Position numbers and translations under genes: made by a program | Notes under the pieces: model-generated | Databases searched by the model: none | What the model was told of the DNA's origin: nothing | The model's input: the letters and a program-made list of their open reading frames with translations, nothing else | Source: Spongilla lacustris | Taxonomy: Eukaryota > Porifera > Demospongiae > Spongillida > Spongillidae | DNA length: 64,000 nucleotides | Direction: 5' to 3' | Assembly: GCA_949361645.1 (NCBI GenBank) | Contig: OX442415.1 | Coordinates: forward strand, 26,494,092-26,558,091 | In this document: positions 39,770 to 57,100 of the stretch, piece after piece | Layout: each line of letters starts with the position of its first letter | Position numbering within the stretch: position 1 is the first letter of the stretch

Positions 39770-40078
39770 AAGAATTTTTTTAGCTACTCCGACTTTGCTT
39801 TCCCTGGAACAAAGAGGACAATTAAAATGCATATACTGGAAATGCACATCATCGAGTGGATGAGTACATACAATGCTGGACTTGGACTAATGGGAGAACA
39901 AGGCACTGAAGCCATACATGCCCATTTCAAACAAGTTGTATAGGACTAGGACGTATGGCTGTATGGCAACCAAAGTGCAGTGGCTAAAATGCATCATGCA
40001 AGAGCATCACCTGAGTGTGTATCCTACAGTACTCTTGATGCCAATACTAGTAAGAACGATAAAAAGAAAGCGTGAAGA
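39770..40078 (+). pseudogene. C-terminal remnant of a second RAG1-like copy
   Basis: The frame reads KMHILEMHIIEWMSTYNAGL then GLMGEQGTEAIHAHF, matching KMHILEDHMLEW...GLMGEQGAESIHSKF in the gene at 47992-51574. It carries the Glu that corresponds to the last catalytic residue. After a stop and frame change it reads KVQWLKCIMQEHHLSVYP, matching RLKSIMQDHYLSISP. The exons between 36850 and 39770 are not recognisable. Confidence 0.75.
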
Positions 40079-44169: not shown

Positions 44170-44700
44170 CTTTGTAGCCTGTGCAGGAGTTCACTGCCTT
44201 ATGCGGGTCTGGGGATGCGACTGGAGGTGGAGGTGATGTGGTGATGGTGATGTGAAGGTGATGGTGAAATGAATTGTTTGATGAGGTGACTATTTAGTTC
44301 AAAGACAAATCGATAACATGCTGCATGCAACTCAAATGAAATAGTAAAACCATCAGTAATTACTGAACTTATCCATATCCATTTGGATCGCACACAACAT
44401 GTTGCCTAGCATATGATGGCCTTTAAGATTAACCTGCAATGAGGGGGGAGGTCCAGGGTCTAGGAAAGGGAGCTGCACTGTCTGTTCCCCACAGAGACTG
44501 CTGGATTACAATGGGAGATGGGAGGGGGTGGAGCTACAGTGTGCATATGTGTGTACGTCACCAGCAATCTTTCCTACCATGGTGTTGGTGCTAATGTTAG
44601 TCATGCTACCCATGCATGGGGTGTGGTCTGCATGAGTGCCACACCCACATGTACATCATCACCATCACTCTAATGTAGTAAACACTGGTCAAAAGAATTG
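44170..44700. repeat. Dispersed repeat block, copy 3
   Basis: Matches 20495-21290 (ttcactgcctta, ggtccagggtctagg, ccacagagactgctggat, ggggtgtggtctgcatgagt). It ends before the LAMTOR5-like part. Confidence 0.75.
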
Positions 44701-45088: not shown

Positions 45089-47278
45089 TCACATGATATA
45101 CTTCAGTACATTATTGTTGCCAAAGTTTGGAACATAAAGACTACCCCTTTGAGGATCTAGTGCAACTCCATGTGGTTTGTTCAGGTTCCCTACTGTGTGG
45201 ATCTTCTGTCCTTTGGAATCAAAGATGGAGAAGCAGCCTCCACCGCCATCACAGACATAGCTGTAACCTTCTTCATCAACTGCTACTCCTGATGGCCTCT
45301 TTACATCTCCATATGATCTGACATAAGTACCTTCAGGTGTGAAGACTTTGATGGTGTTAGAACCAAAGGATGCTACATGAATATTCCATTGTGGGTCTAA
45401 GGATATACCCCAAAAGCCTTTGAAAGGATTATTACCAGTACCAAATATGGTCAATAACCAGTCACCATCTTGACTGAATACTTGAACCCTGTTGTTGCCC
45501 CCATCAGTGACAATCCCTCTATTCTTAGAGTTCACAACAACACCACATGGATACTTGAACTGTCCCTGACCTGATCCTTCCTTACCAAACTTATGAAGGA
45601 ACTTTCCTCCTGTTGTCAACTTCTGTATGCGACGATTGCCAAACTCTGCAATATACATCACCTCTCCTATGATGGATATGCTACAGGGGACATTGAACTG
45701 ACCATTACCACTCCCATAGCTACCAATGGTGTTCTTCAGGTGACCACCTTGGTCAAACACATATATGTGGTGATCATTACTGCCCACATAGATATCTCCA
45801 TTCTCATGGATGGCAACACAGTATGGATTCTTTACATTGATTACTTGCTGGACATCACATAATGAGGTATAATCACTCTTCACCTCTAGGTCATAAGGAC
45901 TCCCCTGTACATGATGACCATCCATTGTGATGAGGAGCTGGTGAGGACCAGCTGTCTGAGGGGTGAGGGTGATGGTGTAGGTACCATCCCCATGGTCCTC
46001 CACCTGACAGAAGACAACTGCTCCATCATGTGACTTGGGCCTCAGCTCAGCCTTCACCTGCAGACCACCACATGGGTACCTCTCTCCCTTTGATGTCTTG
46101 GTCTCCACTTTAACATGATACTTTCTGTTCACCCTGGATACAGACTTAAAAGTACATGTACATTCAGAAGGGGATGGAGATAGGTCCACAACTCCACCAA
46201 ATTCAGATAGCACTTTTGCAAGAGAGTCTGACTTCAAAGTAGCAGATAGGTAGCTATGTGGATTTGAAGTGAGGGACACATTCTCCACCTTCTTGAGGGT
46301 GGCTTTCAGTTCAGTGGGTACCAGTCCTCCAAGCGCTACCACCTCATGGTCAGTGTGGGTCTGGAGGATGTGGGAGGTCACCTCAGTGTAGTGACTGATG
46401 TCATGCTGAATCTTCTCAAACTGCTCCTTCTGAAGGGTCAGAGTTGTTGTCTTGGAGAGTGCAATGGTTTCCAACTCCATCAACAACGCATTCTTTCTTT
46501 CCTCTAATGTCTCCATCAGTTGCTTAAAGGTCTGTATGATGGCCAGTCCAGCTTCTTGTTTGGAGGTCTCCACCTGTTGCATCATCTTCTTATTGGCATC
46601 AATGGCACCAGCCAATGTTAACACAACCTGTTGTGCACATTGAAGTGTCCCTCTCATTTCATCTCTATCAGCTTCTGCAATAGTGGACAGCTCAGTAATG
46701 TTGTGGTCTTTGTGAAGTATCATGACACAGAGCTGACAGGTGAAACATCTACAAGTCTTACAGCAGAAATCCAAATCTAGTTTCTTATGCTTTGGATCTG
46801 AGCAGTGATGCTCTGTTGGTTTTAAGAGTGCTGGTAGCAGTGTGGCTGACTCCCTGTCCAGTCCTATCACATTGTGCTGGGACAGCTGTGGAGCACGATT
46901 GTGACATTCTTGGCCACCTTTGCACATGAACATGTGACATGAGCAACAGAACACAACTGCAGGATCATTGCATCCTTTTACACAGAAGGTACATGACACT
47001 CCAGAGGTACTGGCAAACTTGGACATGTACCCAGCAACCTCCACCTCAAATCCAAGATGGAGGTTCTGAGGGAAAGCACTGGCCCCACCCACTGGGATTG
47101 GAACATTTCTTAGACAGGTGGGACACTGAAGGCTTTTCTGAGGTCCAACCTTGTCCATCTCCTTGTGAAGGCACTGACAACAGAAGGAGTGCAGACATGG
47201 TAGTATTCTTGGGTCACTGAAGGGCCCAGAGCACATCTGACAGGTCACGTGATGTGGAAGGCAATCGTTTGTAGTCAT
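45089..47278 (-). CDS. TRIM-NHL protein TN8, intact, head-to-head with the RAG1-like gene
   Basis: A single-exon gene of 729 residues with RING (CQMC, CLHSFCCQC, CPTC), B-box region 1, B-box2 (CSDPKH, FCCKTCRCFTCQLC), coiled coil, filamin and six NHL repeats. The ATG at 47278 aligns with TN1 and TN7. Differences from TN7 are spread through the NHL propeller (for example VPCSISI, FKGFWGISLDPQWN, YVCDGGGGCF), whereas the RING is almost unchanged. The upstream block is intact and about 730 bp separate its ATG from the RAG1-like start, with opposite transcription. The biochemical role expected for the family is E3 ligase and RNA or protein binding; the target is unknown. Confidence 0.93.
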   Translation of the reverse strand: MTTNDCLPHHVTCQMCSGPFSDPRILPCLHSFCCQCLHKEMDKVGPQKSLQCPTCLRNVPIPVGGASAFPQNLHLGFEVEVAGYMSKFASTSGVSCTFCVKGCNDPAVVFCCSCHMFMCKGGQECHNRAPQLSQHNVIGLDRESATLLPALLKPTEHHCSDPKHKKLDLDFCCKTCRCFTCQLCVMILHKDHNITELSTIAEADRDEMRGTLQCAQQVVLTLAGAIDANKKMMQQVETSKQEAGLAIIQTFKQLMETLEERKNALLMELETIALSKTTTLTLQKEQFEKIQHDISHYTEVTSHILQTHTDHEVVALGGLVPTELKATLKKVENVSLTSNPHSYLSATLKSDSLAKVLSEFGGVVDLSPSPSECTCTFKSVSRVNRKYHVKVETKTSKGERYPCGGLQVKAELRPKSHDGAVVFCQVEDHGDGTYTITLTPQTAGPHQLLITMDGHHVQGSPYDLEVKSDYTSLCDVQQVINVKNPYCVAIHENGDIYVGSNDHHIYVFDQGGHLKNTIGSYGSGNGQFNVPCSISIIGEVMYIAEFGNRRIQKLTTGGKFLHKFGKEGSGQGQFKYPCGVVVNSKNRGIVTDGGNNRVQVFSQDGDWLLTIFGTGNNPFKGFWGISLDPQWNIHVASFGSNTIKVFTPEGTYVRSYGDVKRPSGVAVDEEGYSYVCDGGGGCFSIFDSKGQKIHTVGNLNKPHGVALDPQRGSLYVPNFGNNNVLKYIM

Positions 47279-47690
47279 TCTACACAAGAGATGAAAGTAC
47301 TAGTAGTAACACCATGAAGGAAAAATACACTAAATGCACCATAGTGTTCATTTCGGAGAGATGCTATCGATCGGTATCGTGTACTGATTTAGGTGACTTG
47401 GGTCGATAAGTTTAGCTACCGGGGGTACGCCGAACACAAGTAATGAAGGTTTCTATAACGCTCCCCGTTAAGGAATACAATCGTTTCCTATCAATACCTA
47501 TTACGTACCTAGTACCTGACTGTAGAGGCGCTCTGCTTTATTTATCACGTGACTGAAACAGTTACATGAACCTCGTCTCACGGCTGTTCCGTACGTGACA
47601 TTAGGTTTTGAAATTAGATCGTAAGGTTTGAATTACGGTATATGTATAAAAATGGTCGCCATAAAGCTCATTAACTGACACTTAACTTCG
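47279..47690. promoter_or_regulatory. Conserved upstream block of TN8, shared with the RAG1-like gene
   Basis: Matches the TN7 block over about 400 bp, from cggagagatgctatcgatcg to agctcattaa. It lies between two divergent genes, TN8 (-) and the RAG1-like gene (+), so it is a candidate bidirectional promoter. No core promoter element was identified with confidence. Confidence 0.5.
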
Positions 47691-47991
47691 GAGGTCGCTT
47701 GTACTTGGCCCTTTCTACCAAAGCAAAAACCAATAACAGGTTTATGTTTAGAAAACATCTGAAATATTATAGCACTATTTGCGCAATCAAATACTATAAC
47801 TTAAGCAATGCACTTATGGCCACGCATACGGGCGCTTCTAAACAAAACTAAAACTACCACGTGTTCACTTTCATATGGTAAAAAAGTGCTCTTATTAAAT
47901 CGGCTTTAAAACGCACTGAAGAAAGAGAAAGAAACGGTAAGTCATTTGATGAATTCAGCTTCGTACTACGCACCTGCAAACTAGTTGTAAA

Positions 47992-50900
47992 ATGTCTTAC
48001 AAAACCATGAATAATTTTCACGTCACGAGAGCCGCAATGGAACAGCACAAGTGTCAATTGGATAATTTGTGCCGGTTATGTGGTTGCAAACCATCTAAAC
48101 GCCGTAAACAAGCAGCAATGGCAAAAAAGCGGCCCTCTTACATGTTCATGTGTGCGGAGTTTCATGAAGAGCTACTGTCGGCCTTTCACATAGACACACA
48201 AAAAGACAGTCCTGAGATCCACCCCCCTAAGTTCTGCAACAAGTGCTACGTGATGATGAAACGTGCAACAGTTGCATCACAAAGCCAAACACCATACACA
48301 TGTCCGCTGGAGCCATATGACTGGAGTAACCATACTGTCAGCACCTGCAAGGTAGTGTGCAAAAAAAAAAAAAAAAAAAAAAACTTTCACAATTCATTCT
48401 TCTTTCACCATAGGGTTGTAACAGGAATATGCCATTTTACATGACTCGGTGGTGGAAACCAGAAGCATGTGGCAGTACTCCAGCTGACACTGTACAGCAC
48501 ATAAAGGTAATAGCACCACAAAAAGTCATTAAAAATCCAAACCAACCACTATTGGCTACAACACAGGTGTTATCTGCTATGGATGAGTTGATATGTCCTA
48601 TTTGTCTTGATGTGCTAAGACAACCAATTCAACTCCCATGTGACAGGCTTGTATGTGCCACATGCCTAATTGAGTGGATCCATTTGAATGCTACGTACTG
48701 CCCTTGCTGTCACTCCACAACACCACTGACCAGCAAAAATCTCAAACCAGCTGTACAAATCATTCAGCTGCTCCTGTATGATGTTATGGTGTGCTGTAGG
48801 TCATGTGATAGAAGCATCAAGGCCATCGAGTATGACTCACATCGTTGTACTGAATCTGTAACCAGACAAGAGATGCAACTTGTCAGCAAGGTAGCTAGTG
48901 CACAAGATGCTTGATGCTTCCAAGGAGAACATCATTCAGATAAATACTGGTGGAACTGTAAGTAAATAAAATTGATAAATGGTATGAATGATTTATATAC
49001 TTACCCCTACTCACAGCCTCTGAAACTGGCTCGCATTGCATCTCCTAAATCACCCCCTGATCAGCTCAGCCAACGTACCCGCAAAAGACGTATTCATGAG
49101 GTCCAAAACATACGAAGCATCATAGGGGTCAATTCCAAGGGTTCTGAACTCATACTTGGGGATGAGATCAGGGTACTGAGTGTGGAAAAGAAACAGGAAT
49201 TACTTCACAGTGCTGGGGTCCAAATTGAAATGCTACCAATGCAAGGGCTTGCAATAAAATCCATGCTAGCCATCCCATGGTACAGATTGAGAATCCTCCG
49301 TAGGTACATTGGGCACATTGGGGTACATAGGATCCTTCATGTATGTGTATGAAAAAATTTATGCATTTATACAGATGGTTAAAACAGGCTGGAGTGTACA
49401 TTGGCAGCGAAGGAAAGCAGCGTGCTCTTGCGCATGAGTTTATAGGTGACAACCTCATGGTGGAGTTGGCCCCCTTCTCTTTCAAACTGCCTGATGGGGG
49501 CGAAGAACTACGTGGTGCAGCATATGGCTACACGCCCAGCCTAATCCAGAAGATCAAGCAACTTCTGGAACAGAATGAAAGGTCAGTACACGTGACAAAT
49601 AAAATGTGAGTTGTGCAATTGCGTGACTTCCTTTCAGGGAGGATACACTTGTGTGGCATGATGGAATCATACCAAAAGATGAAGTGTGGATTAAGCTTGG
49701 TGGTGACAAAGGGGGTGGCATGTTCAAGATGAACTTTCAAATTGTGAACACTCAATCACTCAACTCTGTTCATAATACGTGTGTGTTTTCCTGCTTCGAG
49801 GCAGATGACACAGTGACAAACCTACATGTGGCACTTGACCGGTTTAGAACAGAGGTGACTCAAATGTGCGTCATGAAATGGAAGTAAGTTGCAATTGGCC
49901 CAGAAGTTTTGAACAAGCATGATATAGTTTATGTCTATATGATACTGTAAACAAAGGATGTACTCCCTGAAAGTGTTTCTCAGCGGTGACCTTGAGTTTC
50001 TCAGTCAAATATATTGACTATCAGGTGCATCAGGTATACATTCAGTGCTTAACCATTCACAATCACTGAGCAGCTTGACATTTCTTAAATGCAGGGAAAC
50101 AGCCATGTTTATTATGTCATATTACTCTTGATGAGCTACGAAACCCCTCTACACGAAAAGGTCCATGCACTCCTCGCACTCTAGACACAATTCTGCTTGA
50201 CCACCAAAACTTTATGGATGATGGAGGGGATATTAAGCGTGCAAAGGAGTACAATAACTGCATACAAGATCCCTTTTTTAACATTCCTTTGTCTCAGGTA
50301 AATGTATAATTATAATATAAAATCCGATTATGAATTTACATATATATATACATGTAGGTTTGCTTACCTGGTCTGCATATAACACAAGGGATCTTTCAGA
50401 AACTCTTTTCCCTTTTTGAAGAATCCTGCCATACACTTGATCTGATGCTTGCGATGTACTGGCAATCCTCTCCAATCAGCAAATCTCAATATGATGTGTA
50501 CTCTGGGGCACTGAGAGAGATAAATAACGCTAACATTGAACTGGAGCAGCTGCACCAAGAGAAGGCCACGTTGCAACAGCTAGCAACATACAGTGCACTA
50601 GTTGCTGGCAGCAGCACGCTGATCACTGCAGGACTCCTGGAACTTTCTGCGAAATGTCATGAGGAGGTTAAAAGACAGGTATATACACTATTTTAGGCAC
50701 TATTGATTTACCATTCAATTCTGAGTTCCTACCCCTTAGGAAGCCAGAATCAAAGGTTTACAAGAAACCATTGATAAGTCCTTTAATCTAGATGATGGAC
50801 CTTGTATCAAGAGCCTTCAATCCTGTTTAAATTCACTTGGTGTGTGCCGTCAGCGTTATTATGGTGGAATTTTTGTGGGGAATCATGTATACACGATTCT

Positions 50901-51574
50901 CAAGGTATTTTTTACACTATATGCAAATGTCTATTGACTAAATTGCATTGCACATATAGCCTGCCAATGTGGAAGCTCTTTGCAGTTGTGTATTAATGGC
51001 TACTGAGCACATACCTGAGTTAAAAGCAGAAGCGAATGGCATTTATATGAAATTCAGCACCATCCTGTTGAAATTCTCTGAATGCCATTCTCTGTATGAC
51101 AGTAAAGTACACAACACAAGTACTATGCAAAACCTTGGTATGTGCATACCTGTTTATGTACTGCAATGCTTTTGAGCTATTCCTTTCACTCCTAATAGGT
51201 GAGGCCATCAAGAGCTTCTTTTGTCTCTTTGACAAATATTTCACTGGAATAGGCAGGACACTCAAGATGCATATCCTCGAGGACCACATGTTGGAATGGG
51301 TATCAACACACCTAGCTGGCTGTGGCCTAATGGGGGAACAAGGCGCTGAATCTATACACTCGAAATTCAATTCGTTAAAGCGTACCTACTCTGGAATATC
51401 AGAAATCCTATTGCTAGGCTTAAAAGCATTATGCAAGACCATTACCTTAGCATTTCGCCACACATGTCAGCTGCAGTACCAACACCTGAAAAAAGAAGAG
51501 TACATAACTCTCTAGCACTATTCAACGTCATCGTTATCGTATCCACCTCGCGTACGTACATAATCATTTTATAA
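47992..51574 (+). pseudogene. RAG1L: RAG1-like gene, near full length, 11 exons, with lesions
   Basis: Exons with GT-AG borders and consistent phases: 47992-48351, 48414-48957 (or -48890), 49017-49303, 49375-49581, 49638-49883, 49957-50033, 50095-50297, 50358-50678, 50740-50904, 50960-51137, 51199-51574. Aligned by eye with vertebrate RAG1, exon 1 carries LCRLCG, IHPPKFCNKCY and, across the splice, STCKGCN, the N-terminal zinc region. Exon 2 has a RING (CPICLDVL...PCDRLVCATC...YCPCC), a CxxC...H finger and INTGGT, like the INKGGRP of RAG1. Exons 3-4 match the GLAI...YRLRILRRWLKQAG region. Exon 5 has IKLGGDKGGGMFKMNF (first catalytic Asp candidate). Exons 6-7 have VFLSGDLEFLSQIY and GKQPCLLCHIT. 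Exon 9 has YYGGIFVGNH, and exon 11 GLMGEQGAESIHSKF (catalytic Glu candidate). Lesions are TGA at 50015-50017, a probable 1-nt shift near 48904 and another near 51395. No RAG2-like gene or terminal repeats were seen. Confidence 0.75.
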
Positions 51575-51579
51575 TAGAC

Positions 51580-52370
51580 ACCTCAAAATGGCGCCGTATT
51601 CAATCGACGAAATTGGACAAACGAAGTAGCGTAGTCACGTATAGACGACTGAAAACACAAGATCAAACCCTTTACTACGTTCGAGGCGTTTCTTGTCCAA
51701 AAATATAAGAGCAATTCTTAGAAAACATAAGCACTGTTGACCATACCCATTTAGACCCAGTGTCTTTTTGGCAGTGTGGCACGTGTTCGCCAAGGTATCA
51801 TTGCTAGAAACTAGTGTTGTCGAGTAGCAAAGTCCTTACTGCACGTGTAGGTTGCCCTTTGGGTAAAAAAACCCACGACATCTTCTCGTACATAAACCTC
51901 TTTCCACCTACTGTCGTTGCTATGGAAGTAATGAGCCATGTTGCTAGGTACTTAAAATTCATAGTGGGCGCGGACCTGTTGTCCAAATTTCAATGCAATG
52001 AAACAGCCGTGGTACGTCTCCAGGCTATAGTTTTATATGGGATTTTTAAAAAATTGTCCGGCTAACGTTATATAAAATCGGGCCTGGGGACGAGGCAACA
52101 AAATTTATGCTATGGTTTTGTTGTTTCGTAAATCAATAATCTGTATGACCAAAAAAGAAAGAAATCCATATATTTACTGTTCCAATCAACTGTGAACTGC
52201 AATGGGCTTCTACAATTACCAGAGTGTAAAAAAAAAACTGCTCTGGTCTGTCTCAAGCAGTAGAGAGGTCTCACAGCAAGATGCAGTCACACTGCCAGAA
52301 ATCCTCTTCTTGTAAGTTGGATGACCATAACTTCAATTTACAGCTAAACTCAACTTCTATGGCAGACAAG
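51580..52370. other. 3' flank of the RAG1-like gene; one MITE; retroelement scrap
   Basis: Unique sequence to about 52010, then a CCTCGTC-type foldback MITE (52013-52097), then a scrap identical to the start of the 40859 retroelement remnant (52285-52375, LDDHNFNLQLNS). No gene is called. No CACAGTG-type terminal repeat was found at the edge of the RAG1-like gene. Confidence 0.5.
52013..52097. mobile_element. Foldback MITE of the CCTCGTC-CCAGGC type
   Basis: Ends acgtctccaggct and gggcctggggacgaggc around ...ttgtccggctaacgttatataaaatc. The left stem half (gttagcggg) is deleted compared with 40600-40672. Confidence 0.65.
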
Positions 52371-53094
52371 GCACGATGTGCAGAAGGAGTTAATTGCCTA
52401 TGTGGGTCTGGGGACGAAACTAGAGGTGGAGCAGGTGGTGGTGAAATGAATTGTATGATGAGGTGGTTATTTAGTACAAAGACAAATCGATAACATGCTG
52501 CATGCAACTCAAGTGAAATAGTAAAATCTCAGTAAACCATGGCTTTACTTAACTCTTATCCATATGCACTTGAATTGCACGCATGTTGTGCCTGATTGCC
52601 TTAAAGTTCAGTCAACCATCAGCAGCCCTACAGTTCTAATATTCATTTGAGTTGCATGTAACATGTAGCCTAGTCGGTCGCCGATGGCCTTGAAGATTAA
52701 CTTGCAATGAGGGGGGAGGTCCAGGGTCTATGAAAGCTGTCTTGTTCCCCACAGAGGCTGCTGGATCACAATGGGAGATGGGAGGGGGTGGAGCTACAGT
52801 GCACATATGTATGTACGGCACCAGCTATCTCCCCTACCATGGTGTTGGTGCTATTGTTAGTCAGGCTACCCATGCATGGGGTGTGGTCTGCATCAGTGGC
52901 ACACCCACATACATGGGGTGTGGTCTGCATCAGTGCCACACCCACATGCATACCATCACCATCACTCTAATGTACATGTAGTAAACACTGGTCACAAGAA
53001 TTAGAATCACAAACCACACACAGTTAGTTTGCGGCAGCACACAAGTATAGCTGTTCTCTGTGAAGCAGGTGAGGGGGAAGGGGAGGCTGTGAGA
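52370..53094. repeat. Dispersed repeat block, copy 4, 3' of LAMTOR5
   Basis: Matches 20495-21250. Because this copy is continuous with the true last exon of LAMTOR5, it is the likely source of copy 1, which carries an orphan LAMTOR5 exon. Confidence 0.75.
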
Positions 53095-54169: not shown

Positions 54170-57100
54170 ATGGAGTTCACCGAAGCCGCGTGTAAAGTGT
54201 TTAGAGAGTGCTCCCTGGTGCCCAGCATAACAGGGGCCACCGTACTCCGTACCGACCCTGGAGGTTCGCGCTACGAAGTGCGCGTGCAATGGGAGCAGCG
54301 GGATCTGGAGAGGGGCAAGCAGGTGGCCACCACCAAGTCCTATTTCATCGAGAGGAAGGGAGATCACGTGGTGCCCGTGTGCAGCACGACCTTCCAAGCC
54401 GACGCCAGTTCCGTGTAAGGCAGCTGCACGTGACCCTCACAAAGTCAACTGAGTTTAACCTGCATTATACAAAACGTTGCACACTCGTTTTATAAAAAAT
54501 ATATACGTATAGCTTGAGGCAGGCGTTCTCCGGAGATGGTAAATTGCGAGCCGTGCTGCTGAAGGATAAGTCTGCAAAGGCTGAACCTGGTAGCGAACCC
54601 CAGCAGTACATAGAGGTGGGGGAGGAGCGACCACGCCTCTCATCACGTGCACTTTTGTATTGGTGCACACATTCACTTGCACACATAACACTTGTACGCA
54701 TACACACGTACAGCACACATGGTCTGGGGACCCTGCAAAAAGCACTTCTTGCAGGGTCCCCAGACCAGCACACATACACAATCACACATGCACAACACAC
54801 AATCACTCACACCATCCACATACCACCCACACACACACACCACACACCCCCACTACCCACAACATTATGCACACACACATCACCCACACACACCACCCAC
54901 ACATCACCCACACACACCACCCACACATCACCCACACACACCACCCACACACATCACCCTGCAGCAGATGCACACACACACCAGCCCCTTCACCCTGCAG
55001 CAGATGCACACACACACCAGCCCCTTCACCCTGCAGCAGATGCACACACACACCAGCCCCTTCACCCTGCAGCAGATGCACACACACACCAGCCCCTTCA
55101 CCCTGCAGCAGATGCACACACACACCAGCCCCTTCACCCTGCAGCAGATGCACACACACCAGCCCCTTCACCCTGCAGCAGATGCACACACACCAGCCCC
55201 TTCACCCTGCAGCAGATGCACACACACACCAGCCCCTTCACCCTGCAGCAGATGCACACACACACCAGCCCCTTCACCCTGCAGCAGATGCACACACACC
55301 AGCCCCTTCACCCTGCAGCAGATGCACACACACCAGCCCCTTCACCCTGCAGCAGATGCACACACACACCAGCCCCTTCACCCTGCAGCAGATGCACACA
55401 CACACCAGCCCCTTCACCCTGCAGCAGATGCACACACACACCAGCCCCTTCACCCTGCAACAGATGCACACACACACCAGCCCCTTCACCCTGCAACAGA
55501 TGCACACACACCAGCCCCTTCACCCTGCAGCAGATGCACACACACACCAGCCCCTTCACCCTGCAGCAGATGCACACACACCAGCCCCTTCACCCTGCAG
55601 CAGATGCACACACACACCAGCCCCTTCACCCTGCAACAGATGCACACACACCAGCCCCTTCACCCTGCAGCAGATGCACACACACACCAGCCCCTTCACC
55701 CTGCAGCAGATGCACACACACACCAGCCCCTTCACCCTGCAACAGATGCACACACACACCAGCCCCTTCACCCTGCAGCAGATGCACACACACCAGTCCC
55801 TTCACCCTGCAACAGATGCACACACACACCAGCCCCTTCACCCTGCAGCAGATGCACACACACACCAGCCCCTTCACCCTGCAACAGATGCACACACACC
55901 AGCCCCTTCACCCTGCAACAGATGCACACACACCAGCCCCTTCACCCTGCAACAGATGCACACACACCAGCCCCTTCACCCTGCAACAGATGCACACACA
56001 CACCAGCCCCTTCACCCTGCAGCAGATGCACACACACACCAGCCCCTTCACCCTGCAACAGATGCACACACACCAGCCCCTTCACCCTGCAGCAGATGCA
56101 CACACACCAGCCCCTTCACCCTGCAACAGATGCACACACACCAGCCCCTTCACCCTGCAGCAGATGCACACACACCAGCCCCTTCACCTCTGCCTTCTTA
56201 CTGGCCCAGGTGTGGTGCAAGGCAAACCTTATTAAAGTTATCGAGGTGCCATCGCTGAAGAAACATGGAGTCATACACGAGAATGGTATGTTGCTGTGCC
56301 CGAACGCGAATGTAACGAATATGTAAGGACACATGCACACTTGCACTCATATGCACACACATTCACTCGCGTGCTAGACAGTAGTACATACATGCAATGT
56401 ATATGTACACATTCGGTGGGCTACATTGACACTGTCGTGTACACCTTATATATGGACAGCCTCACGGTCAAGATAAAAACATTAACCATGAGTAGTTATT
56501 AAAGTGGCGATCTGTTGCTTATATGTATCAAAGAGAGCTGTGCACTAAATGGAAAAGTAGATTGGGTTTTGATGGTGGTGCTTCTAAGGCCACATTTGAA
56601 CTAAATTTTATTTTCTACTTTGTATTAGACTATAGTGTAACGAGATTTCACAATCTGATTTATTGCGAAGTGGCGTACGGGATTTGTGCCATATCGTGGA
56701 TTTAGCTGGAGTACCGCGAATAAGCTGATGCTTCATATCTTTGCTACTATCGAACCAAAAGGCAAAGATTTTTAATGTTTTGTTCCAGTCGCAAAGCCGT
56801 TTGCTTTTTTAAAAAAATAGAGGCAGTACAGTTCTCGTACTTGGTCCCATTGTCCCCCCCCCCCCTCCATTCCCCTCCTCCATATTGTCCCCCTCCATTG
56901 TCTCCTCCATTGCCCCCCTCCATTGTCCCCCCTCCATTGTCCCCCTCCATATTGTCCCCCTCCATTGTCTCCTCCATTGCCCTCCTCCATTGTCCCCCCT
57001 CCATTGCCCCCCTCCATTGCCCCCCTCCATTGTCCCCCTCCATTGTTCCCCTCCATTGCCCCCCTCCATTGCCCCGCTCCATTGCCCCCCTCTATTGTCC

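What the first reader, a model, noticed from the sequence alone, without database searches (positions are those of the whole stretch)
47992..51574. Near full-length RAG1 homologue, including the N-terminal zinc and RING regions, in an early animal genome
Eleven exons with consistent phases join into a protein that follows vertebrate RAG1 from end to end. Shared landmarks are LCRLCG/LCRICG, IHPPKFCNKC/IHPTEFCHNC, STCKGC/PSCDIC, a RING, INTGGT/INKGGRP, LAIK...RILR, the CLLC/CTLC pair after an xxGASG turn, GGIFVGNH/NGNFARK followed by VEALC/VDAVC, GEQGAES/SEGNES and the final HYL/HWL block. Most invertebrate RAG-like reports concern deuterostomes or single domains, so an intact domain order with introns in a probable sponge bears on when the N-terminal and catalytic parts were joined.
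Basis: partly seen in the sequence, partly recalled or inferred. Interest (0 to 1): 0.95.

Follow-up and report, generated by a model that had tools for sequence, protein, structure and literature searches.

The report
Sponge jumping gene built like RAG1
The sequence is one damaged copy of a cut-and-paste transposon, of a known group called Chapaev, in a sponge genome; its enzyme has the same parts in the same order as RAG1, the enzyme that rearranges our antibody genes, which bears on how RAG1 was assembled but is not itself a RAG gene.

The parts
47579..52011 (+). whole Chapaev-type DNA transposon copy, 4433 bp
   Evidence: identity to the other full copies stops at both ends; TIRs at both ends
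47579..47588 (+). left terminal inverted repeat CACGGCTGTT
52002..52011 (-). right terminal inverted repeat (AACAGCCGTG on + strand)
52012..52019 (.). right flank GTACGTCT; the left flank ends in CGTCT, so the only possible 4-bp duplication (GTCT) is displaced by 4 bases: no clean target duplication in this copy
47992..48351 (+). exon 1: start codon and most of the Chapa (RAG1 importin-binding-like zinc) region
48414..48957 (+). exon 2: end of Chapa, RING (residues 181-219 = 48594-48710), GGTP motif; carries the private 4-bp insertion at about 48892
49017..49303 (+). exon 3
49375..49581 (+). exon 4
49638..49883 (+). exon 5: DUF1280 block with first catalytic-type Asp (D488 of the L009 protein, 49705-49707)
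   Evidence: catalytic role inferred
49957..50033 (+). exon 6: second catalytic-type Asp (D558, 49988-49990); this copy has a TGA where 14 of 14 other rows read GGA
   Evidence: catalytic role inferred
50095..50297 (+). exon 7: C(2)C motif CLLC
50358..50678 (+). exon 8: LH motif (GLH) and start of a long helical insertion
50740..50904 (+). exon 9
50960..51137 (+). exon 10
51199..51574 (+). exon 11 to stop codon: H(4)H motif HILEDH, GEQGAES with the catalytic-type Glu (E912, 51348-51350); private 2-bp insertion at about 51396
   Evidence: catalytic role inferred
39770..40073 (+). separate, partial match to the same protein (residues 866-961, pieces 59% and 38% identical): a remnant of a related element

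Best explanation
The stretch is an inactivated copy of an autonomous cut-and-paste DNA transposon of the Chapaev group (CMC/CMCT clade), living in a demosponge close to freshwater sponges (host inferred from protein hits). Its single intron-split gene encodes a 985-residue transposase in intact copies. The Chapa zinc region and RING sit in front of a RAG1/Transib-fold core: DNA-binding and dimerisation helices, an RNase H domain with a D-D-E set, and a large insertion bracketed by the C(2)C and H(4)H zinc-type pairs. Shown: copy number, ends, duplications (4 bp in most), exon structure, domains and predicted fold of relatives. Inferred: the enzyme binds the CACGGCTGTT ends, cuts at the CAC border (by analogy with RAG1 and Transib perhaps through a hairpin), and inserts with a 4-base stagger; the N-terminal part regulates the enzyme or binds DNA and need not be a working ubiquitin ligase, because the sponge-type RINGs lack the usual zinc-binding His.
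For: 17 places cover the whole 601-bp probe at 95-100% identity, window included. Full copies end at the same two points. TIR CACGGCTGTT/AACAGCCGTG. Of 13 two-ended copies 11 fit a 4-bp duplication (9 unambiguous), two have 5 bp; the window copy has none; a sister-family element has GGAA on both sides. The exact or one-mismatch left end occurs 23 times, with 0 hits for the reversed control. Intact frames in 2 of 16 copies. DUF1280 5.9e-11, and DUF1280 is stated to be the Chapaev transposase (PMC3985635, passage). C(2)C, LH and H(4)H motifs, CAC/GTG ends and 3-4-bp duplications are the Chapaev hallmarks given in PMC4079192 (passages). Fold; repeated on a starfish relative. Constraint between families: pN 0.24, pS 0.79 over 935 codons.
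Against: No Chapaev reference sequence (Repbase) was available, so no tree places it in a named Chapaev subgroup. Two of 13 copies have 5-bp duplications, and two of the 4-bp cases (L014, L015) lie in simple repeats, where the length is ambiguous. The window copy has no clean duplication. No transcript data. The structures are of relatives (42% and 28% identical to the query), with mean pLDDT 73 and 63, not of this protein.
Confidence: 0.92

Rival explanations
1. It is a RAG-like (RAGL/ProtoRAG-type) transposon or a degenerate RAG1L locus in a sponge.
Against: No Pfam RAG1 core hit in the seven proteins scanned; a profile of the core finds no RAG1 or Transib chain at E up to 10 (4 hits, all coiled-coil noise); mostly 4-bp, not 5-bp, duplications; 413 bp before the start codon and 437 bp after the stop leave no room for RAG2L beside the gene.
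Confidence: 0.04
2. A domesticated host gene derived from such a transposon (a sponge RAG1-like recombinase gene).
For: Long intron-split gene with conserved intron positions and constraint between families.
Against: This copy has three private disabling lesions; copies are dispersed, flanked by duplications and bounded by TIRs. Constraint between families is what selection on transposases during transposition gives.
Confidence: 0.02
3. The RAG1-like N-terminus was added to the Chapaev core independently of RAG1 (convergent fusion with an N-RAG-TP-like module). This concerns the origin, not what the element is.
For: A published model derives the RAG1 N-terminus from insertion of N-RAG-TP into Transib (PMC8355894, passage); canonical Transib lacks it (PMC4411706).
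Against: Order is the same throughout, and the sequence match to RAG1 runs on past the RING to RAG1 residue 401, including the GG-x-P motif just before the core.
Confidence: 0.3

Closest known systems
Chapaev transposons with Chapa domain and RING (Kapitonov and Koonin 2015, PMC4411706, citing Kapitonov and Jurka 2007)
   Same: Chapa zinc region, RING, Chapaev (DUF1280) core, CAC/GTG termini, 4-bp duplications, C(2)C, LH and H(4)H motifs
   Different: Host is a sponge; ten introns; the RING lacks the usual His ligand in 13 of 13 sponge-type sequences with the motif, against 0 of 4 others. Whether known Chapaev members have such introns was not checked.
Vertebrate RAG1
   Different: Mobile, multi-copy, no RAG2 in the element; catalytic part not detected by sequence profile; 14% identity in the structural alignment
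RAGL / ProtoRAG transposons
   Different: One gene, no room for RAG2L; mostly 4-bp rather than 5-bp duplications
Transib
   Different: Canonical Transib has no Chapa or RING (PMC4411706) and 5-bp duplications (passages)
N-RAG-TP of Aplysia
   Same: RAG1 N-terminal-like sequence in a transposon
   Different: Described as made up of the N-terminal-like sequence only (PMC8355894, passage); here it is fused to a full core

Membership tests
Chapaev | 3-4-bp target site duplication | tested here: met
   11 of 13 two-ended copies fit 4 bp (two of them in simple repeats), 2 of 13 have 5 bp, window copy none; sister element L030 has GGAA on both sides
Chapaev | 5'-CAC ... GTG-3' termini | tested here: met
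Chapaev | Chapaev transposase core (Pfam DUF1280) | tested here: met
   E 5.9e-11, above cut-off; identity of DUF1280 from PMC3985635
Chapaev | C(2)C, LH and H(4)H motifs | tested here: met
   CLLC 577-580, GLH from 645, HILEDH 886-891 in the L009 protein
Chapaev | Chapa domain (and RING in two subgroups) | tested here: met
   RAG1_imp_bd and zf-C3HC4 above cut-off; four other RING models and U-box below theirs; that RAG1_imp_bd covers the Chapa domain is inferred
Chapaev | clusters with named Chapaev elements in a tree | not tested
   no Repbase references on hand
RAGL / RAG1 | RAG1 core recognisable by sequence profile | tested here: not met
   Pfam RAG1 not listed for 7 proteins at E up to 5 or 10, with HMMER's speed filters on; core profile finds no RAG1 chain. 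The whole-genome search for this family did not complete.
RAGL / RAG1 | RAG1 core fold | tested here: met
RAGL / RAG1 | RAG2-like partner gene in the element | tested here: not met
   only 413 bp before and 437 bp after the coding region; genome-wide Pfam RAG2 search found none, but its control did not ring, so that part is inconclusive
RAGL / RAG1 | 5-bp target duplications | tested here: not met
   2 of 13
Transib | 5-bp duplications and core without Chapa or RING | tested here: not met

The most novel reading that the evidence does not exclude
Sponge Chapaev elements are vertical descendants of an ancestral transposase that already carried the whole RAG1 order (Chapa, RING, a GG-x-P DNA-contact motif, RAG1-fold core, C-terminal domain) before sponges split from other animals, so the RAG1 N-terminus was inherited with the core and not added late, and Transib lost it.
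Probability: 0.35. Interest if true: 0.7.

Novelty: new member of a known kind. Interest (0 to 1): 0.42.

Why it matters
Two published views of how RAG1 got its N-terminal half disagree: late fusion with an N-RAG-TP-like element (PMC8355894), or inheritance from a common ancestor of Chapaev and Transib (PMC4411706). Abundant sponge families, some with the full order and with copies still open, plus a predicted core that matches RAG1 along its whole length, give a deep outgroup with which the two views can be tested by comparing trees of the two halves. The RING that lost its His ligand in sponge-type proteins may also help to separate the structural role of that domain from ubiquitin ligase activity.

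Tried and rejected
A RAG1 or RAGL assignment was rejected on duplications, missing RAG2L and lack of a core profile match. A host gene was rejected on copy number, TIRs and lesions. dN/dS could not be given as a number for the whole protein, because synonymous sites are saturated (pS 0.79). L028 and L029 held only fragments or a broken relative and were not used for rates. L011 is interrupted after 51154, so its rows after that point were dropped from the 2-bp count; L025 and L016 lack one stretch each and were dropped from the counts there. The NBD match in one structural row (6cil_A, rmsd 9.3) lies in a stretch with pLDDT mostly under 60 and is not relied on. The Pfam RAG1 search over the whole genome did not complete. 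A genome-wide RAG2 search found nothing, but its control did not ring. NCBIfam gave only one weak rad18 row for one of two proteins (E 0.52); Rfam gave nothing for 47000-53000. RAG1, ProtoRAG and Transib were not ranked by Z, since their rows overlap. Absence of sponge Chapaev reports: 7 papers hold 'Chapaev' and 'sponge' and 2 hold 'Chapaev' and 'Porifera' (listings). Passages of two of them (PMC4298943, PMC8533490) concern other elements; the rest were seen as listings only. Searches listed only part of what they found, and searches did not ask for sponges. The library holds open-licence papers only and Repbase was not searched, so this is a weak absence.

Full report
WHAT IS THERE. A 601-bp probe from the 5' part finds 45 places in the same genome, 17 of them covering the whole probe at 95-100% identity, the window included (the tool scores only the best candidates, so counts are lower bounds). 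Full copies match the window from about 47579 to 52011 and no further. The ends are a perfect 10-bp inverted repeat, CACGGCTGTT / AACAGCCGTG. Of 13 fetched copies with both ends, 11 fit a 4-bp target duplication and two a 5-bp one; two of the eleven (L014, L015) lie in simple repeats, where the length is ambiguous. The window copy shows none (GTCT on the left, GTAC then GTCT on the right). The left 27 bases occur 17 times exactly and 6 times with one mismatch, and 55 more times with two or three mismatches, which I take as ends of sister families; the reversed control gave 0. The right end behaves alike: 19 exact of 60, control 0.

STATE OF THIS COPY. Sixteen copies (window plus 15) were aligned. 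The window copy alone has a 4-bp insertion in exon 2 (absent in 14 of 14 homologous rows), a TGA in exon 6 (14 of 14 others read GGA) and a 2-bp insertion in exon 11 (absent in 14 of 14). L009 and L014 keep an open frame of 985 codons with all ten GT/AG introns; the other 14 of 16 are broken. Against the 13 other two-ended copies the window is 97.85-99.59% identical over aligned bases (L018 and L011, which are interrupted and partly misaligned, score 97.1 and 91.0), so the family probably moved recently. L014 has lost one RING cysteine.

THE PROTEIN. The L009 protein hits DUF1280 (5.9e-11), RAG1_imp_bd (1.8e-05) and zf-C3HC4 (7e-05) above Pfam cut-offs; four other RING models and U-box are listed below theirs. 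Against solved structures by sequence, residues 17-274 match full-length RAG1 residues 100-383 (3.8e-09). Part of this is a generic RING match (BRCA1 3.1e-08, TRIM proteins from about 2e-06 in the same list), but a RAG1 N-terminal chain without RING matches residues 18-121 at 1.8e-05. A nine-sequence profile matches RAG1 139-401 at 4.3e-15 and the N-terminal chain at 1.4e-07, the former running through the GG-x-P motif in front of the core. A profile of the core alone finds no RAG1 or Transib chain at E up to 10 (four coiled-coil hits), and Pfam RAG1 is not listed for any of seven proteins. Relatives in the protein database: 29 and 46 hits, nearly all Ephydatia muelleri, with one starfish, one brittle star, one nematode protein and two of unnamed source; the second search scored only the 7,995 candidates sharing most words. 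A third search from three outer relatives gave 7: three starfish, four unnamed. The host species was not identified; a demosponge near freshwater sponges is inferred from these hits.

WHICH FAMILY. [quoted passage not shown] Chapaev hallmarks are 3-4-bp duplications, CAC/GTG termini and C(2)C, LH, H(4)H motifs (PMC4079192, passages); all are met. C(2)C and H(3-4)H motifs are shared by EnSpm, Mirage, Chapaev, Transib and RAG1, grouped as CMCT (PMC12730594, passages); Repbase files Chapaev under EnSpm (PMC4455052, passages). Kapitonov and Koonin (PMC4411706, section 6 read) state that two Chapaev subgroups have a Chapa domain followed by a RING, and propose that these were fused with the core in a common ancestor of Chapaev, Transib and RAG1. 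RAGL elements instead carry a RAG2L gene and have 5-bp duplications (PMC7204232, passages); neither fits here. That Pfam RAG1_imp_bd covers the Chapa domain is my inference from position and motif.

FAMILY IN THE GENOME. The catalytic exon alone has 150 matches (150 of 169 candidates were scored, so a lower bound): 19 over the full exon at 94% identity or more, the rest a spread of families, one with 18 rows at 70% identity. Pfam RAG1_imp_bd rings at 22 places over its cut-off, and in 0 of 14 control genomes. One sister element, L030, is 61% identical over 935 codons with pN 0.24 and pS 0.79; the Chapa part (102 codons) has 0.32 and 0.82, the RING part (90 codons) 0.23 and 0.66, so all parts are constrained. 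It keeps 8 of 10 introns with GT and AG at the same codon and phase; one more has a GC donor, and one was not resolved.

THE RING. A pattern for the RING start was found in 17 of 61 proteins scanned (60 database proteins and L009). In 13 of 13 sponge-type sequences (L009, eleven E. muelleri models that are not all independent, one of unnamed source) the position of the usual zinc-binding His is Arg, Gln, Lys, Thr or Ala, while in 4 of 4 others (one starfish, three of unnamed source) it is His (which residue is the usual ligand is recalled). The cysteines are largely kept. So E3 activity is doubtful in sponges although the domain is conserved.

MECHANISM. Shown: mobility (dispersed copies, TIRs, duplications), single-gene layout, intact frames elsewhere, predicted fold of relatives. 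Inferred: the enzyme binds its TIRs, cuts at the CAC border and inserts with a 4-base stagger; hairpin formation is argued from fold only; the N-terminal part acts in regulation or DNA contact.

SIGNIFICANCE. A new member of a known kind. Its value is as a sponge outgroup for the origin of RAG1's two halves. Co-linearity from the N-terminal zinc region through the GG-x-P motif into a RAG1-fold core favours joint inheritance over two separate fusions, but horizontal transfer and convergent fusion are not excluded, and the needed trees could not be made here. Direct searches for 'Chapaev' with 'sponge' or 'Porifera' gave 7 and 2 papers, none whose listing or passages report such an element in a sponge; the main text of the Ephydatia genome paper holds neither 'RAG' nor 'Chapaev' as word starts. 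Repbase itself was not searched, and may hold sponge entries.

Noticed in passing
39770-40073: A second, partial match to the same transposase (C-terminal part, pieces 59% and 38% identical) lies in the same window.
   Followed up: partly
48892 and the same kind of change in L018, L019/L020, L016, L025: Several copies carry 4-bp insertions inside exons; in the window, L018, L019/L020 and L016 they sit at TA dinucleotides (TA-GC-TA, TA-AT-TA, TACTGA, TCAGTA), in L025 at TG-CA-TG, resembling excision footprints of Tc1/mariner-like elements (footprint types recalled).
   Followed up: partly
45092-47287 (minus strand): A TRIM-NHL-like gene (RING, filamin, NHL repeats) whose likely start codon lies about 300 bp from the transposon's left end, so the insertion may sit in its promoter.
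   Followed up: partly
G000:C1 1925632, 1968693, 2011754: Three places exactly 43,061 bp apart hold the same 83-bp piece of exon 1, each with a left end nearby: perhaps a 43-kb tandem duplication carrying a shortened copy.
   Followed up: no
G000, 18 rows at 70% identity: A sister family with many near-identical catalytic exons (open frames of 180-192 residues) suggests a recent burst of another Chapaev family.
   Followed up: no
44256-44650 and 52433-52910: Pieces of the same dispersed repeat (89-92% identical) lie on both sides of the TRIM-like gene and transposon.
   Followed up: no
54954-56193: A 1.2-kb tandem array of a 36-bp unit (35 copies, 96% matches).
   Followed up: no
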